From Candidatus Eremiobacterota bacterium (GTDB taxonomy: Bacteria; Vulcanimicrobiota; CADAWZ01; Ess09-12): 64,000 bases of DNA. Shown piece by piece: positions 1,482 through 7,940 of this stretch. The notes under the pieces are model-generated. The model saw nothing but the letters and a program-made list of their open reading frames with translations. It had not been told where the DNA came from and searched no databases. The stretch lies in contig JAVHLM010000021.1 in NCBI GenBank assembly GCA_031082125.1, forward strand, positions 62,001 through 126,000, in the 5' to 3' direction. Numbering within the stretch: position 1 is the first letter of the stretch; every line of letters starts with the position of its first letter. Made by a program: the position numbers and the translations under genes.

Positions 1482-2738
1482 ATGATCATACACTCGAGAA
1501 TGTTCCTGAAAGGCTCCGCGCTCCTGGAAAAGACCGGAGAGGCCGATATTGTCGTGGGCATCATGTCCCGCAATGACAGCGGCACTGTCCGCCATGTGGC
1601 GGAGCAGGCGGCTTCAGGCCTGAGAATGTACCTCCGGGACCTGAAGGCTGTCATGGTGAACATGGACTGCGGCTCCACAGACGGCACCCCTGAGGAATTC
1701 CAGCGCGCCGACATCCACCGGGCCGTCACTTTCCTCACTCTCGACCATGGAAAGGATCACCTCCCGCCTGCCCATCTGCTCTTCAAGTGCGCTGAAGTTC
1801 TCAATGCCTCCCTTGTCATTGTGCTGAGCGGCGCTTCCCCTTCAATAACTCCTCTCTGGCCGCTGAGGCTTGCCTCGCCTCTCCTGGAAGGAGGCTGCCA
1901 GTACGTGAGTCCCCTCTACTATGAGAATCCCTGCCACCATGCCATGAGGGATTTTCTTGTCTTTCCCCTTTTCTCTTCCCTTTACGGTGTCAGGGTGAGG
2001 AACCCTTTTCCCGGTGACTATGCCGTCAACGGGAAAAGCCTTCCAGAGCTTCTCAACCCCGAATGTGAAGAGCTTCATATCACAGCAGGAGCAGCTTTTC
2101 CCCTCATGAGGGCTCTCCAGATGAAATGGGATATCGGCGAAAGCCTGCTGGGAACAAGGAAGGGCCGCCAGGAATTTTTCCCGGCCCTGGAAAGGCAGGC
2201 AGAGCACTTCACGGGGACTTTCGCTGTATTGCTGGACCGCACGGAGAAGCTCTTTTCGGAGCGGGGAGCTCCAGAGGCGCCCCGCCAGTTCGGTGAGGCC
2301 CGGTCGGAATATCTTCCCTTTGAAGGCGTGACGGCAGAATCCCTCTGGGAGCATTTCACGAAGGGCCTCAGGAACCTTGAGCACATGGCCTGCGAGGTCT
2401 TCTCCCGGCCCTCAATGAGAGCCATTGGAGAGCTTGCCGCCCTGCCCCTGAGGCTTGGGGCATTTCCCGGGAAGCTCTGGGCAAAGGTGGCTTCTGAGCT
2501 TATCCTTGCCATGATGGAGAGACGTGACGGGAAGGGGCCTGAAAGCGAGAAGTTTCAGGCAGGGGCAGCTTCGCTTCTGACAGCACTCCTCTGTGCCAGG
2601 CTCATGCCGGCGGTGAGGGATTCCACATGCCACTCTGTCGAGGCGATGGAGGAGATAGTTGCCGGCGGGGCCGGTGAGTTCCTGGAAGAAAGGCAGCCTT
2701 TCCTGGAGCGACTGAAAAGCTGCTATTTCCCCGGCTGA
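1482..2738 (+). CDS. Glycosyltransferase resembling glucosylglycerate/mannosylglycerate synthase
   Basis: This is a 418-residue GT-A glycosyltransferase. The N-terminal ADIVVGIMSRND and MDCGSTDGT segments match the glucosylglycerate/mannosylglycerate synthase-like group, as does the later FPGDYAVNG (usually GGDFGFSG). In characterised members the product is a compatible solute or a glycolipid precursor. The start is placed at 1482 because a promoter sits at 1417-1445; the 53 residues that an in-frame start at 1323 would add lie upstream of the transcription start and look non-coding. The gene ends tail-to-tail with the next minus-strand gene, overlapping by 16 bp. Substrate assignment is inference. 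Confidence 0.75.
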   Translation: MIIHSRMFLKGSALLEKTGEADIVVGIMSRNDSGTVRHVAEQAASGLRMYLRDLKAVMVNMDCGSTDGTPEEFQRADIHRAVTFLTLDHGKDHLPPAHLLFKCAEVLNASLVIVLSGASPSITPLWPLRLASPLLEGGCQYVSPLYYENPCHHAMRDFLVFPLFSSLYGVRVRNPFPGDYAVNGKSLPELLNPECEELHITAGAAFPLMRALQMKWDIGESLLGTRKGRQEFFPALERQAEHFTGTFAVLLDRTEKLFSERGAPEAPRQFGEARSEYLPFEGVTAESLWEHFTKGLRNLEHMACEVFSRPSMRAIGELAALPLRLGAFPGKLWAKVASELILAMMERRDGKGPESEKFQAGAASLLTALLCARLMPAVRDSTCHSVEAMEEIVAGGAGEFLEERQPFLERLKSCYFPG

Positions 2739-4378
2739 GGCGTCTGCTGCGGCGCCTGGGCCCCCGGCATATACTTCCCCAGCTGCTCTTCCAGGAGCTT
2801 TTTCAGGAGATCGCCTGTCTTGCCTGCTTCCTTGCTGCCCTCCTCCTTGGGAACGTGCTGAAGCACTTCCATGTAGGCCTTCACGAGGTCGTCGGCACTC
2901 TTGATCTCCCGGGCTTTCCCTTCTTTCGAGGGCTGGAAGTAGAACTTCCCGCCCTTTGAGAGCATGTCGTAAGCGCCGAGGGGAGAGAGGGGCGTCTTCG
3001 CGCCGTCCTGGCCCGCCGTGTACATGCTGCCGCCATATCTGGTGTTGAGGTCTGCAAGGTGGATCAGGAGATCCTTCGTGGCCTGGCTGTCCTTCAGGGC
3101 ATCCTTGGCCCATTGGACGCTTTCCTGCATGCCTGATTTGGCAATTTCACCGGTAATTTCCTTATAGATGGTGCCGAGCTGCTGGAGATTCCTGATCTCG
3201 ACCGGCTTTGCGTTCTTGCTCCCTTTCAGATAGATCCCTTCGCCTTTGCTGAGGCTCTGGTATGCCTCCATAGGGCTGAGGGGCTTCTCCGAGGGGCCCT
3301 TATCAGTTTTGCCGTAGATGTTCCCGCCGAATTTTCCCGTTATCTCCTGGAGGTGCGACAGGACCTGCTGGCCCTGGGTGCTGTTCTGGAGGGCATCCTG
3401 GACCCAGGCCATCCCCTGGTCCTTCACGGCTTCAATGGCGCTCTCCTTGATGACCTGCTGGTAGACGGTCCCCAGGCCCTGAAGGTTCTTGATCTCCAGG
3501 GGCTCTGCATCCTTCCCCCCCTTGAAATAGACTGTTTTCCCCATCAGGACGTCCTTGTAAGCGTCAAGAGGGGTGAGGGGCGTGAGGGAATCTCCGCTTT
3601 TCCGGTAGATGTCGCCGCCATGGGATTTGGCAAGCTCCCCGAGGTGGGCCATTACCTTCTGGCCGTATTCGCTGCTTTTCAGGGACTCGGTCATGGAGTC
3701 CAGGACGCCTGTGGCCTCCTGCTTTGCAGCCTCTGCGATTACTTCCTTGTAAAGGGTGCCGAACTCCTTGACGTTTTTCACCTCGATATAATCAGTGGCC
3801 GATGACCCCCTGAAGTAGAAGCTCTGTCCCTTGAGAAGGATGTTATAGGCATCCTTGGCGCTGAGGGGCTCCGTGGAGGGGCCCTTGTCGGTCTTGGCGT
3901 AGATATTCCCTCCGTAGCGCTGCGCAACCTCGGAGAGCCGCACAAGCGATGACTCGCCGATGCGCTGGAAGTCCTCCATCGAGGAGATGCCCTGGGATTC
4001 CTGGGAGATGACCTTCTCCTGGGGCGGCTTGTCCTGCAAGGGCGGTTCCGCCGTCCTCGTGCCGCATCCTGCCGTGCCAAGGAGTGTGAGGCCGATGAAG
4101 AGCCCCACCATCGAGTTTTTGAGCCACTTCCCCAGCACTCCCCCGAAGGGGCTCACTTTTTCTCCCGCGGCGGCGCCTGTTCCGGGAGGTATTTCCCTGC
4201 TCTCTGCCGGCATCCCTTTCCAGGTGAGGCCCTTTTCCAGGGACCTGTCCTGCTGCAGGGTTACCGTGTCGCCCTGCAGGGCATTTTCCGTGCTGCCTGG
4301 CGCGCCCTGCCCCGGCGGCAGCTGCAGCTCCCGGGGAAACCATGGTAATGCATCATTTTTCCTTATATCCATAGGCAT
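2723..4378 (-). CDS. Membrane-anchored protein with four ~97-residue repeats
   Basis: The function is not recognised. With the chosen start it has 551 residues. An N-terminal Pro/Gly/Gln-rich segment of about 80 residues precedes one hydrophobic stretch ending in a lipobox-like GTAGC near residue 105. Four tandem repeats of about 97 residues follow. Each has a YGG(N/D)IY core, a KTDKGP-like loop, PLSPxxAY, a KG-x-x-YFKG strand and an EIKNLxxLGTxY helix. The protein ends Pro/Gln-rich. A strong promoter at 4445-4473 rules out an upstream start at 4552 despite its good SD, so ATG 4378 or 4372 is preferred. A GTG at 4138 would give a classic lipoprotein signal and cannot be excluded. It is probably exported or surface-anchored. 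Confidence 0.75.
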   Translation of the reverse strand: MPMDIRKNDALPWFPRELQLPPGQGAPGSTENALQGDTVTLQQDRSLEKGLTWKGMPAESREIPPGTGAAAGEKVSPFGGVLGKWLKNSMVGLFIGLTLLGTAGCGTRTAEPPLQDKPPQEKVISQESQGISSMEDFQRIGESSLVRLSEVAQRYGGNIYAKTDKGPSTEPLSAKDAYNILLKGQSFYFRGSSATDYIEVKNVKEFGTLYKEVIAEAAKQEATGVLDSMTESLKSSEYGQKVMAHLGELAKSHGGDIYRKSGDSLTPLTPLDAYKDVLMGKTVYFKGGKDAEPLEIKNLQGLGTVYQQVIKESAIEAVKDQGMAWVQDALQNSTQGQQVLSHLQEITGKFGGNIYGKTDKGPSEKPLSPMEAYQSLSKGEGIYLKGSKNAKPVEIRNLQQLGTIYKEITGEIAKSGMQESVQWAKDALKDSQATKDLLIHLADLNTRYGGSMYTAGQDGAKTPLSPLGAYDMLSKGGKFYFQPSKEGKAREIKSADDLVKAYMEVLQHVPKEEGSKEAGKTGDLLKKLLEEQLGKYMPGAQAPQQTPQPGK

Positions 4379-4380
4379 AC

Positions 4381-4399
4381 AGGGGAAGCAGCTTCCCCT
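4381..4399. promoter_or_regulatory. Perfect 19-bp palindrome in the 5' leader of the repeat-protein gene
   Basis: The sequence AGGGGAAGC-A-GCTTCCCCT has 9-bp arms around one central base. It lies between the promoter and the ATG at 4378 and contains or adjoins the purine-rich ribosome binding site. It could be an operator, or an RNA hairpin that hides the binding site. Function is inferred only. Confidence 0.5.
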
Positions 4400-4444
4400 C
4401 CTCCTCTCAGAAGACGTACAGAGAAATAGAAGGCCTCTGAAATG

Positions 4445-4473
4445 ATTATAGGGGAAGGGAAAGGTTCCGTCAA
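4445..4473 (-). promoter_or_regulatory. Near-consensus promoter for the four-repeat protein
   Basis: On the minus strand the -35 box is TTGACG (4468-4473), the spacer is 17 bp and the -10 box is TATAAT (4445-4450). Transcription should start near 4438, about 60 nt upstream of the ATG at 4378. Confidence 0.8.
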
Positions 4474-4714
4474 TTACCATTTCGTTAATAAATCGAGACT
4501 TCTGCCTTCTCGCTTCACCACCGTCAATTCCACGGAGAGCGAGCTTATTCATTCAGTACCTCCCTGCAGCAGATAATCCCCCGCAATGCAATCCGATATC
4601 CCGGATCTGCCCGAGAAGGTATTTCCCTGCCCTCCGCCTAAATCTCCCAGGTGCGGCATTAAGGTCCGGCCGCTTGAGAAGTAAGGAAAACCGTCTCCAC
4701 TGGGGGAAATATCA

Positions 4715-6016
4715 ATGATCATTCCTTCAATAGACCTCATGCAAGGCGAAGCGGTGCAGTTCGTGGGGGGAGAAGAGTCGCCTGACATGGTGCGCCTCGG
4801 CGATCCCCTGCAGCTTCTCAAAAAATTCAGCATTGCCGGAGAAGTGACCCTCGTGGACCTGGACGCGGCCCTCGAGAAAGGCTCGAACGAGGAGCTCATC
4901 CTGAAAATGCTCGCCTTGGCGCCCTGCAGAGTGGGAGGCGGGATAAGGACCACGAGAAAAGCAAGGGCTTACCTTGACGGCGGGGCCGCGAAAGTCATCA
5001 TAGGCACCAAGGCTGAGCCAGCATTCCTCAAGGAGCTGCCCCCTGAGAGGGTCATCGCCGCCATTGACTGCGCCAACGGCCGTGTGGTAATAAACGGCTG
5101 GCGCGAGAAAACTCTCTATTCCCTGAAGGAGAGGATGGAGATCATCAGGGACTACGTGAGCGGCTTTCTGGTAACCTGCGTGGAAAGAGAGGGACGGCAG
5201 GCAGGAATGGACATGGGATTCCTGGAGGTGCTGGCCTCGATGGGGGGCATGGATCTCACCCTTGCAGGGGGCATCTTTAAGACCGCCGAGATAAGGAGGG
5301 CCGACGAAAGGGGAGTCAATACCCAGGTGGGGATGGCCTTCCACACGGGGAAGCTGCTTCTTGCCGATGCCATTGCGGCGCCCCTCAGGCCCTCTGACCG
5401 CCCTGACGGCCTCTGGCCCACGGTGGTGGCCGATGAGAGGGGCACGGTGCTCGGCCTTGTATACTCAGGCCCCGATTCCCTCAGGAAGGCCGTGGCGGAG
5501 AGGAAAGGGGTGTATCACTCCCGGGGGCGGGGAATCTGGGTGAAAGGCGCGCAGTCAGGGAACTGGCAGGAGCTCGTCTCAATCACTCCCGACTGTGACA
5601 GGGACACGCTCCTCTTCACCGTCCGCCAGCATGGCGAGGGATTCTGCCATCGCCGGTCTTACTCTTGCTTTGGGGAGGCCAGAGGCCTCCAGGCCCTTGA
5701 AAAACGCATCATGCAGAAGCTTCAGAAGCCTGAAGAGGGCTCCTACACCAGAAGGCTCGCCTCAGAAAAGGGCCTTCTCAAAGCGAAGCTCCTCGAGGAG
5801 GCAGGGGAGCTTGCCAGGGCGAAGGGAGACGAAGTGACGGCCGAGGCCGCCGATCTCCTTTATTTCACGATGGTGGCAATGGCCAGGGCAGGCGTGACCC
5901 TCTCCTCGGTGGAGGAGGAGCTTGCGAGGAGGGCCTTGAAGGTCACGAGAAGGCCGGGCAATGCCAAAGGGAGGAGCCGTGGAAAGAGCACCCTGTCTTT
6001 ACCTGGGAACCTCTGA
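4715..6016 (+). CDS. HisA-HisI-HisE fusion, histidine biosynthesis
   Basis: This 433-residue protein joins three histidine enzymes. Residues 1-225 are HisA (ProFAR isomerase barrel): IDL with Asp7, VDLDAAL at 47-53, VGGGIR at 73-78, Asp118 in AIDCANG and Thr154. The usual TDI after strand 6 reads TCV, but the catalytic Asp pair is kept. Residues 229-320 are HisI (phosphoribosyl-AMP cyclohydrolase), with DCDRD at 293-297 and metal Cys311 and Cys318. Residues 335-415 are HisE (phosphoribosyl-ATP pyrophosphatase), with LLEEAGEL and EAADLLYF. The HisI-HisE part looks more like fungal HIS4 (LGLVYS, EGFCH, SCFGE, EGSYTRRL, LKVTRR) than ordinary bacterial HisIE. A purine-rich SD precedes the ATG. 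No other his gene is adjacent. Confidence 0.93.
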   Translation: MIIPSIDLMQGEAVQFVGGEESPDMVRLGDPLQLLKKFSIAGEVTLVDLDAALEKGSNEELILKMLALAPCRVGGGIRTTRKARAYLDGGAAKVIIGTKAEPAFLKELPPERVIAAIDCANGRVVINGWREKTLYSLKERMEIIRDYVSGFLVTCVEREGRQAGMDMGFLEVLASMGGMDLTLAGGIFKTAEIRRADERGVNTQVGMAFHTGKLLLADAIAAPLRPSDRPDGLWPTVVADERGTVLGLVYSGPDSLRKAVAERKGVYHSRGRGIWVKGAQSGNWQELVSITPDCDRDTLLFTVRQHGEGFCHRRSYSCFGEARGLQALEKRIMQKLQKPEEGSYTRRLASEKGLLKAKLLEEAGELARAKGDEVTAEAADLLYFTMVAMARAGVTLSSVEEELARRALKVTRRPGNAKGRSRGKSTLSLPGNL

Positions 6017-6898
6017 TAAGCCTTCAGCGCTCCCGTCCCCCTTGAGAAAATCCCAGTGAAGAGCGATGACGAGCTCTTCTGCCGCTTCGATGTCAGGCTC
6101 CTCAGGGAGGGGCGACTCATTCATGAGGCGGGGGAGCAGCGCTTCCTGCTGTGATGACCACTGGACAAGCTCCTCATAGGACATGGCACCTTGGCGAATC
6201 CTTTTGAGCCATTCGGCATCGGGCCTCTTCACCAGGACCTCCCCGGTGGCAAGGATTTCCTGGCCCATCACAAGAAGCCTGCACAGATGCATGGCATGCT
6301 TGGTGTCATAGCCGTAAAGCTCCTCGAGCTTTGCCCTTGCGGCGTTGCGGTTCCGCCTCCATGCCAGATAGTGGTTCCAGTGCTTTATGGCGGCCTGGTA
6401 ATGGTGCTCGGCGTCAAGGTGGGGGAAGCGGTAGCGGCCCTCCACCATTTCCGCGCCGAAGTCAGCAGGCGAAGGCTGTCTTTCCGGCGGCGACTGAAGC
6501 CACCGGTGATGGCGCTCTATCCTCTTGAGCTGCGCTGCGGCGTATGAGCTGAAGCGCTCGCCCACGCGCCGCGACAGAAAGATCCGCCGCCCTTCAAGAA
6601 GCCTTCCGCCCGGGGCATTCACGAAGAGGACATGCTCAGGGTCCGCAAAGAGCGTCTCAATGATGTTGGGATTTCCCTGGAGGGCCAGCCTCACGAACTT
6701 GGCGAGGGAATAGACAACGTGGTCGTGGCCGATGCTTTCATGCTGATCAAAGGTGCGAAGGCCCAGGAGAAACTCCCTGGGGGGGATGCAGATGCCCCTG
6801 GTGTCTTCATCGCTGTCGTCGCCGGCAAGGCCGTATGCCCTGCTGCCGCAGAGCACGCGCAGGATGAGGTTGCGCTCCCAGAATTCCTCTTCCTTCAT
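5999..6898 (-). CDS. Predicted nucleotidyltransferase (YcgL/COG3541-like, pol beta superfamily)
   Basis: This 299-residue protein carries the minimal nucleotidyltransferase signature GSRAYGL at 18-24, followed by the metal-binding acidic pair in SDEDTRG (Asp30, Asp32). The following HDHVVYSLAKFVRLALQGNP and PNIIETLF segments are characteristic of the YcgL/COG3541 family. Substrate and role are unknown for the family; some relatives occur in phage or stress loci. The 3' end overlaps the histidine fusion gene by 18 bp tail-to-tail. It is divergent from the Clp1-like gene. Confidence 0.85.
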   Translation of the reverse strand: MKEEEFWERNLILRVLCGSRAYGLAGDDSDEDTRGICIPPREFLLGLRTFDQHESIGHDHVVYSLAKFVRLALQGNPNIIETLFADPEHVLFVNAPGGRLLEGRRIFLSRRVGERFSSYAAAQLKRIERHHRWLQSPPERQPSPADFGAEMVEGRYRFPHLDAEHHYQAAIKHWNHYLAWRRNRNAARAKLEELYGYDTKHAMHLCRLLVMGQEILATGEVLVKRPDAEWLKRIRQGAMSYEELVQWSSQQEALLPRLMNESPLPEEPDIEAAEELVIALHWDFLKGDGSAEGLSEVPR

Positions 6899-7046
6899 AG
6901 GGCTCCTTTCTCACCGAGGGCAAGGCGGATCCTTACGACATAATCATCTATTCGCCTCTTTTCCGCTCTTTCCTCGATACCAGGGATCTCCGGTGAGCGA
7001 TGAGCTCTTCCAAGGGAAAAAGGGCAGAGTCGTCGAAGTATGGTCC

Positions 7047-7940
7047 ATGGAATTCATAGTCCCCGCTGAATGGTATATAATCCCGGAGCGCGTGAAAAAG
7101 TACCGCACTGCCGTGGTGCTTGGCGGCACCGATTCGGGAAAGTCCACCTTTGTCCGCTTTCTCTCGTCGGAGCTCGCAAAGGAGGGGATCCCCGTAGGAA
7201 TTGTTGACCTGGATGTAGGCCAGTCCGACATCGGCCCCCCCGCCACCTTCGGTCTTGCCCTTCCCCGGGCTCCTTTTCGCTCTTACGGCGATCTTCCTGT
7301 GGAGTCCCTTTTTTTCCTGGGCACCAAGACCCCCTGGGGAAATACCCTGAGGGGAGTGGCCGGTGCGGCGAGGCTTTCGGCCCTCTCGGCTGCCAGGGGC
7401 ACCCGGTGCATAGTCATCAATACCACGGGATGGATATATGGACGGAGCGCGAAAGTCTACAAGCAGGCCAAGCTCGAGATGCTGAACCCCGGGCTCATTG
7501 TGGCGTTCCAGAGGGACAGGGAGCTTGACCCGGTCCTTCTGCCTTACCGGCATGTCACCGCTACGGAGGTCCTTATCCTCCCTGTGTCGCCTCACATCAA
7601 GGTGCGGTCCATGGAGATGCGGATGCGCACCAGGGCGGAAAAGTTTTCCCGTTACCTGGAGGGAAGCAGGGCCTGCACCCTGCGCCTCTCCAGCCTTGCC
7701 CTTGCGGGTGCCCACAGAGATGAGCTCTCGTGCGAAGATCTTCTCGGGCGCATAGTGGGGCTCCACGACAAGGAGCGGAACTGCCTGGGGATCGGCGTCT
7801 TCCTGGGCACCAGGGGCGACGGCACCATTGCCGTGCAGGCCCATGGGGACCATGTCTCGCGCCTTGCCCTCCTCCACGTGGGAAGAGCGCGCCTCGAGGA
7901 GGAGAACCTCCTGGCCATGGGAATCCTGAGGCCCCAATAG
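7047..7940 (+). CDS. Clp1/Grc3-like polynucleotide 5'-hydroxyl kinase
   Basis: A P-loop kinase of 298 residues. It has GGTDSGKST at 26-34 and the family-specific DLDVGQSDIGPP at 54-65, both hallmarks of the Clp1_P domain shared by archaeal and eukaryotic RNA/DNA 5'-kinases (Clp1, Nol9/Grc3). The C-terminal half is a beta-rich region as in Clp1 relatives. The ATG at 7047 is used here. A GTG at 6993 is preceded by a better SD (AGGGA) and would add 18 residues. The gene stands alone between a divergent nucleotidyltransferase and an MFS transporter. Such kinases are uncommon in bacteria; RNA repair or processing is an inference. Confidence 0.8.
   Translation: MEFIVPAEWYIIPERVKKYRTAVVLGGTDSGKSTFVRFLSSELAKEGIPVGIVDLDVGQSDIGPPATFGLALPRAPFRSYGDLPVESLFFLGTKTPWGNTLRGVAGAARLSALSAARGTRCIVINTTGWIYGRSAKVYKQAKLEMLNPGLIVAFQRDRELDPVLLPYRHVTATEVLILPVSPHIKVRSMEMRMRTRAEKFSRYLEGSRACTLRLSSLALAGAHRDELSCEDLLGRIVGLHDKERNCLGIGVFLGTRGDGTIAVQAHGDHVSRLALLHVGRARLEEENLLAMGILRPQ

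What the first reader, a model, noticed from the sequence alone, without database searches (positions are those of the whole stretch)
4715..6016. Bacterial HisA-HisI-HisE fusion with a fungal HIS4-like HisIE part
Three histidine enzymes lie in one chain in the order HisA, HisI, HisE. The HisIE part carries signatures I recall from yeast HIS4 (RPDGLxxTxVVD, LGLVYS, EGFCH, SCFGE, SYTRRL, LKVTRR) rather than those of common bacterial HisIE. Fungal HIS4 has an unexplained N-terminal domain before HisIE, and weak similarity in position and motif suggests it could be a decayed HisA. This protein, with an intact HisA catalytic Asp pair, may show the ancestral arrangement.
Basis: partly seen in the sequence, partly recalled or inferred. 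Interest (0 to 1): 0.75.

Follow-up and report, generated by a model that had tools for sequence, protein, structure and literature searches.

The report
Histidine fusion enzyme kin to yeast HIS4
A bacterium carries one protein that joins three consecutive histidine-making enzymes (HisA, HisI, HisE); it belongs to a widespread bacterial family from which the HisI-HisE part of yeast HIS4 apparently descends, which makes it likely that the unexplained front end of HIS4 is a worn-down HisA.

Summary
In detail: 4715-6016 (+) is one 433-aa ORF, HisA (1-214), HisI (248-319), HisE (326-406), with a confident full HisA barrel and HisIE fold. The fusion is not rare. At least 80 homologues (44-57% identity) occur in Planctomycetota, Myxococcota, Gemmatimonadota and other phyla, usually as hisF-hisAIE-hisD. 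One Gemmatimonadota order fuses HisD too (about 870-890 aa). In a HisIE tree, 28 stand-alone HisIE (plant included) lie on one side (99/96) and all HisAIE fusions plus two fungal HIS4 sequences, recalled from memory, on the other, with the fungi nested among fusions. AU tests are only borderline. Fungal HIS4 also shares the one-residue 'GFCH' insertion, the 'DRPDGL' junction and the 'TRRxGxAK' tail. So the ancestor of HIS4's front part very probably carried HisA. Direct profile similarity of the HIS4 N-terminus to HisA is collinear but weak. HIS4's HisD came from elsewhere. Limits: this copy is one of hundreds, is not the closest to fungi, is an orphan (no HisG, HisB, HisD or HisF found in its genome), and its HisA half is drifting while HisIE is not. 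A 2021 paper already noted HisAIE near HIS4.

The parts
4715..6016 (+). hisAIE gene, 433 aa, trifunctional HisA-HisI-HisE
   Evidence: AlphaFold2 mean pLDDT 90
4715..5356 (+). HisA domain (residues 1-214), full (beta-alpha)8 barrel
   Evidence: PF00977 E 6e-40; Foldseek to S. enterica HisA, TM of target 0.83
4733..4735 (+). Asp7, HisA catalytic acid/base (S. enterica D7)
   Evidence: invariant in 72 of 72 homologues
5066..5068 (+). Asp118 (S. enterica D129)
   Evidence: invariant in 72 of 72; alignment
5189..5191 (+). Glu159 in place of the loop-6 Asp (S. enterica D176)
   Evidence: Glu in 114 of 114 fused proteins; Asp in 79 of 81 readable unfused HisA/HisF-type proteins
5393..5413 (+). junction SDRPDGL between HisA and HisI, also in fungal HIS4
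5456..5671 (+). HisI domain (PRA-CH, residues 248-319)
   Evidence: PF01502 E 6e-22
5639..5650 (+). GFCH: one-residue insertion before the CH of HisI, shared with core HisAIE and fungal HIS4
   Evidence: 0 of 28 stand-alone HisIE and 0 of 17 outer HisAIE have it; note that GFCH was also one of the two search patterns
5690..5932 (+). HisE domain (PRA-PH, residues 326-406)
   Evidence: PF01503 E 5e-17
5936..5968 (+). tail LKVTRRPGNAK, shared with fungal HIS4 where it begins the linker to HisD

Best explanation
The gene encodes a trifunctional histidine enzyme. HisE removes pyrophosphate from PR-ATP, HisI opens the PR-AMP ring, and HisA isomerises ProFAR to PRFAR: steps 2, 3 and 4 in one chain, in the order HisA-HisI-HisE. 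It belongs to a bacterial HisAIE family spread over many phyla. The HisIE part of fungal HIS4 belongs to the same clade, so the ancestor of HIS4's front part was a HisA-HisI-HisE protein; the HIS4 N-terminal domain (160-220 aa, function unknown) is most likely what is left of its HisA, redundant because fungi have a separate ProFAR isomerase (HIS6, own knowledge). Shown: architecture, predicted fold, family, distribution, conservation. Strongly indicated: common clade of HisAIE and HIS4 HisIE. Inferred: enzymatic activities, decay of HisA in fungi. In this host the gene appears to be an orphan kept without the rest of the pathway; what it does there is not known, and the best guess is a horizontally gained relic or a partly repurposed enzyme whose HisA half is under relaxed selection.
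For: Domains and fold. The best 80 hits are the same fusion or begin in the hisF next to one. Operon context hisG-hisB-hisH-hisF-hisAIE-hisD in L064 and hisB-hisHF-hisAIE-hisD in L063; hisD directly downstream in most loci. In 12 such genomes the fusion is nearly always the only HisA. Tree: stand-alone HisIE against fusions plus fungi 99/96; fungi nested by branches 100/96, 96/85, 99/97. HMM of HisAIE-type HisIE: fungal 261-270 bits, stand-alone HisIE 89-153. Shared insertion, junction and tail. HIS4 N-terminus against HisA profile: scores 23.5 and 24.9, above all 150 column shuffles (max 20.9 and 23.1) and above 40 of 41 real protein pairs, with collinear alignment from HisA residue 13 to 114. 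Acanthamoeba has one chain with HisHF, HisA, HisI, HisE, HisD, HisG (PMC6029752). Orphan: no HisG, HisB, HisD; the only other PF00977 gene is WbuZ-like in a sugar-amidation-like cluster. HisA half differs at 9 of 76 conserved columns (family mean 1.8), HisIE half at 0 of 65.
Against: AU test: fungi with ordinary HisIE is not formally rejected (lnL 48 lower, p 0.069); fungi outside all fusions p 0.044; fungi just outside the core HisAIE clade is not rejected (p 0.62). The profile match of the N-terminus has a probability of only 5-9%, and single sequences give nothing. Pfam finds no HisA in recalled yeast HIS4. None of the three activities was tested by experiment.
Confidence: 0.8

Rival explanations
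1. HIS4's HisIE comes from a bacterial HisAIE, but its HisA was lost outright and the present N-terminal domain is an unrelated later addition.
For: Only weak profile similarity; Pfam detects nothing; PMC1963479 found no homologue of the domain; its low conservation fits a structural extension.
Against: The weak match is collinear in both fungal sequences, starts near the initiator Met and keeps the right order relative to HisI; the junction DRPDGL is kept.
Confidence: 0.15
2. Fungal HIS4 took its HisIE from ordinary stand-alone bacterial HisIE; the likeness to HisAIE is convergence or an artefact of recalled sequences.
For: AU p 0.069 for this grouping is not below 0.05.
Against: lnL 48 lower; over 100 bits more with the HisAIE-type model; three shared discrete traits; an independent network also put HIS4 near ProFAR-isomerase fusions (PMC8102479).
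Confidence: 0.05
3. The host does have a full histidine pathway, in an unassembled stretch, and the gene works in it as usual.
For: The assembly has 69 contigs and is 97.6% complete; one lost operon of about 8 kb would explain all absences. In the same his-family searches the B. subtilis control also gave no match, so negatives are not perfect.
Against: hisAIE lies in mid-contig without his neighbours; HisD is also absent from the four relatives of the same order and from 31 of 38 genomes in the relatives search; PF00977, which rings in all 14 controls, shows no true HisF.
Confidence: 0.3
4. In this host the protein has a new role (for instance the HisIE half acts on another nucleotide) and the HisA half is scaffold.
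For: No upstream or downstream pathway enzyme found; HisIE columns fully conserved while HisA columns drift; composition is native, so the gene is not recent.
Against: All core catalytic residues of HisA are still present; TrpF is encoded elsewhere, so no need for a PriA-like role; no candidate substrate.
Confidence: 0.2

Closest known systems
Bacterial trifunctional PRA-PH / PRA-CH / ProFAR isomerase proteins mentioned in PMC8102479 (Gammaproteobacteria, Spirochaetia)
   Same: Same three activities in one chain; put near fungal HIS4 in a sequence network.
   Different: That paper gives one sentence; no link to the HIS4 N-terminal domain, no operon context, no HisA-I-E-D fusion.
Fungal HIS4 (HisI-HisE-HisD with an N-terminal domain of unknown function; PMC1963479)
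   Same: HisIE 50% identical to the window protein; GFCH insertion, DRPDGL junction, TRRxGxAK tail.
   Different: No recognisable active HisA; carries HisD, which resembles other bacterial and plant HisD rather than the HisD next to hisAIE.
Acanthamoeba heptafunctional histidine protein (PMC6029752)
   Same: HisA together with HisI-HisE in one chain, listed in the same order, followed by HisD.
   Different: Also holds HisH, HisF and HisG; sequence not available here, so kinship untested.
Gemmatimonadota HisA-HisI-HisE-HisD fusion (L120 and 12 related loci)
   Same: Same HisAIE part; adds HisD like HIS4.
   Different: Window protein lacks HisD; this fusion and HIS4 gained HisD separately.
Ordinary bacterial HisIE (Shigella 6j2l) and plant HISN2 (7bgm)
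   Same: Same two domains.
   Different: Other side of the tree; no HisA, no GFCH insertion, no tail.

Membership tests
Bacterial HisAIE fusion family | HisA, HisI and HisE domains in one chain in that order | tested here: met
Bacterial HisAIE fusion family | HisIE part groups with other HisAIE, not with stand-alone HisIE | tested here: met
   99/96 branch; 295 bits against 89-153
Bacterial HisAIE fusion family | Glu in place of the loop-6 Asp of HisA | tested here: met
Bacterial HisAIE fusion family | gene in a histidine operon (hisF before, hisD after); typical, not strictly defining | tested here: not met
   neighbours are RlaP-like and CLP1-like genes; usual context
Fungal HIS4 | HisIE of the HIS4 type (GFCH insertion, DRPDGL, tail) | tested here: met
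   with fungal sequences from memory
Fungal HIS4 | C-terminal histidinol dehydrogenase domain | tested here: not met
   ORF ends 27 residues after HisE; no HisD found in the genome
Fungal HIS4 | N-terminal domain homologous to that of HIS4 | tested here: inconclusive
   weak collinear profile match
ProFAR isomerase (HisA) | catalytic D7 and D129 (S. enterica numbering), phosphate loops GGG and AGG | tested here: met
HisIE | enzymatic activity of each half | not testable with these tools
   needs complementation or assay

The most novel reading that the evidence does not exclude
The unexplained N-terminal domain of fungal HIS4 is a degenerate HisA barrel: HIS4 began as a bacterial HisA-HisI-HisE fusion, lost HisA activity because HIS6 supplied it, and was joined to a HisD from another source. 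The orphan in this window shows the same first step (HisA drifting, HisIE conserved) in a bacterium.
Probability: 0.7. Interest if true: 0.75.

Novelty: new member of a known kind. Interest (0 to 1): 0.6.

Why it matters
HIS4 is one of the most used genes of yeast genetics, yet 160-220 residues at its front have had no explanation. A bacterial family with the same HisIE and an intact HisA in that place turns the question into a simple fold comparison and tree. It also gives a route by which fungi obtained a multi-enzyme protein from bacteria, and shows that HisA-HisI-HisE-HisD fusions exist in bacteria, which a 2007 survey had not found.

Tried and rejected
Single fungal sequences against the HisA profile gave nothing. 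Idea that HIS4 arose from a whole bacterial HisA-I-E-D fusion or the hisAIE-hisD operon: rejected for the HisD part, since yeast HisD is 45-49% identical to Bacteroidota and gammaproteobacterial HisD but about 30-37% to hisAIE-linked HisD. PriA-like role (TrpF) in the host: a TrpF gene is present elsewhere. Contamination of the contig: rejected, tetranucleotide profile fits the genome (0.94 against 0.37-0.60 for other organisms). The C5 HisF-like gene as a true HisF: rejected, it is WbuZ-like beside a HisH/WbuY-like gene.

Full report
Observation. The ORF at 4715-6016 (+) is real: 433 aa, three Pfam domains in the order HisA, HisI, HisE. AlphaFold2 on a 34-sequence family alignment gives mean pLDDT 90 with only the last 16 residues disordered. 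Foldseek matches the first half to Salmonella HisA (TM of target about 0.83) and the second to Shigella HisIE (0.78). The HisA residues equivalent to S. enterica D7 and D129 are D7 and D118. The third acid, D176, is Glu159, a trait of the whole family: 114 of 114 fused proteins have Glu, 79 of 81 readable unfused HisA/HisF-type proteins have Asp (a regular-expression count).

Distribution. The same full fusion is in 9 other genomes of the phylum. A scan of 84,980 species genomes gave 401 relatives, and the best 80 are this fusion in Planctomycetota, Myxococcota, Gemmatimonadota, Pseudomonadota, Acidobacteriota, Spirochaetota, Actinomycetota and Armatimonadota, plus two MAGs labelled archaeal. 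Some of these hits begin in the neighbouring hisF and run on into the HisIE part of the fusion; they were left out of the alignments. The gene usually sits as hisF-hisAIE-hisD with overlapping ends. In L063 (Polyangiaceae) the order is hisB, fused HisHF, HisAIE, HisD. In 12 genomes examined the fusion is nearly always the only HisA. In L120 (Gemmatimonadota) HisD is fused as well, 890 aa without a stop, and 12 further loci of the same order carry the same four-domain frame at 63-65% identity; in one more genome the match is split between contigs.

Link to HIS4. All statements about fungi therefore rest on two recalled sequences, although both score as proper HisIE. With a model built from HisAIE-type HisIE they score 261-270 bits, the window 295, and stand-alone HisIE 89-153. 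In an IQ-TREE analysis of 91 sequences all 28 stand-alone HisIE, including plant HISN2, are one side of a branch (99/96), and the fungi nest among the fusions through branches of 100/96, 96/85 and 99/97. The AU tests are weaker: fungi with ordinary HisIE lnL 48 lower, p 0.069; fungi outside all fusions lnL 63 lower, p 0.044; fungi just outside the core fusions p 0.62. Independent traits agree: the one-residue insertion giving GFCH is in 43 of 43 core fusions, the window and both fungi, and in 0 of 28 stand-alone and 0 of 17 outer fusions. GFCH was one of the two search patterns, so its frequency in the core set is biased, but its absence elsewhere is not.

The N-terminal domain. PMC1963479 describes the fungal domain as 160-220 residues without any known homologue. 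Alignment with the window HisA is collinear (MVLPILPL with MIIPSIDL, YVSLVG with AVQFVG, FLNNGVSSLFIA with YLDGGAAKVIIG, VPKERVVV with PPERVIAA). A two-sequence profile scores 23.5 and 24.9 against a 72-sequence HisA profile, above 150 column shuffles (max 20.9 and 23.1) and above 40 of 41 unrelated real pairs. Probability values are only 5-9%. This is suggestive, not proof. The catalytic Asp and the GGG phosphate loop are not kept in either recalled sequence. The phylogenetic argument is the stronger one: if HIS4's HisIE comes from inside the fusion clade, its ancestor had HisA in exactly that place. Acanthamoeba has a single chain with HisHF, HisA, HisI, HisE, HisD and HisG (PMC6029752), so HisA joined to HisIE and HisD does exist in a eukaryote.

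HisD. Yeast HisD is 45-49% identical to Bacteroidota and gammaproteobacterial HisD and scores best with plant HisD in the PDB, but only about 30-37% to HisD next to hisAIE. The HisD of HIS4 therefore came from another source, and the Gemmatimonadota four-domain fusion is a parallel event.

The host. No HisG, HisB or HisD was found in the 7.43-Mb, 97.6% complete genome. The second PF00977 gene is WbuZ-like beside a HisH/WbuY-like gene. HisD is missing in the four relatives of the same order too. The contig fits the genome in composition. The gene does not group with the fusions of its own phylum, which suggests horizontal gain. Its HisA half departs from 9 of 76 strongly conserved columns (family mean 1.8, second highest of 72), its HisIE half from none of 65. 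So this copy is probably an orphan whose HisA is under relaxed or changed selection. Caveat: the B. subtilis control gave no match in the HisI, HisG, HisB and HisD searches, so absence is not absolutely certain.

Prior knowledge. [quoted passage not shown] New here, as far as the held literature shows, are the breadth and operon context of the family, the Glu signature, the bacterial HisA-I-E-D fusions (PMC1963479 found no HIS4-like protein in prokaryotes), the separate source of HisD, and the argument that the HIS4 N-terminus is relic HisA.

Noticed in passing
L120:3197-5866 and L125-L136: Bacterial HisA-HisI-HisE-HisD fusion, about 870-890 aa, in one order of Gemmatimonadota.
   Followed up: partly
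L063:1894-3249 and L045:6418-7998: L063 (Polyangiaceae) has HisH and HisF fused in one ORF (HIS7-like) directly before hisAIE; in L045 HisF is the C-terminal half of a 527-aa ORF of similar size.
   Followed up: partly
window 5999-7940: An RlaP-like nucleotidyltransferase (minus strand) next to a CLP1-type P-loop polynucleotide kinase (plus strand): possible RNA repair pair right after hisAIE.
   Followed up: no
window 2723-4552 (-): 609-aa protein with about four repeats of some 85-90 residues (motif NIYxKTDKGPS...PLSP..AY..LxKG..YFKG); no Pfam family above threshold.
   Followed up: no
L068, L078: HisAIE on contigs labelled as archaeal MAGs (Euryarchaeota, Halobacteriales); contamination or transfer.
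   Followed up: no
G152 contigs C669 and C704 (genome of L046): Two genes with HisA and HisI matches (HisAIE-type) in one Myxococcota genome.
   Followed up: no
L001 (G000 contig C5): Cluster with a putative N-acetyl sugar amidotransferase, a HisH-like and a WbuZ/HisF2-like gene in the host: probably sugar amidation, not histidine synthesis.
   Followed up: partly
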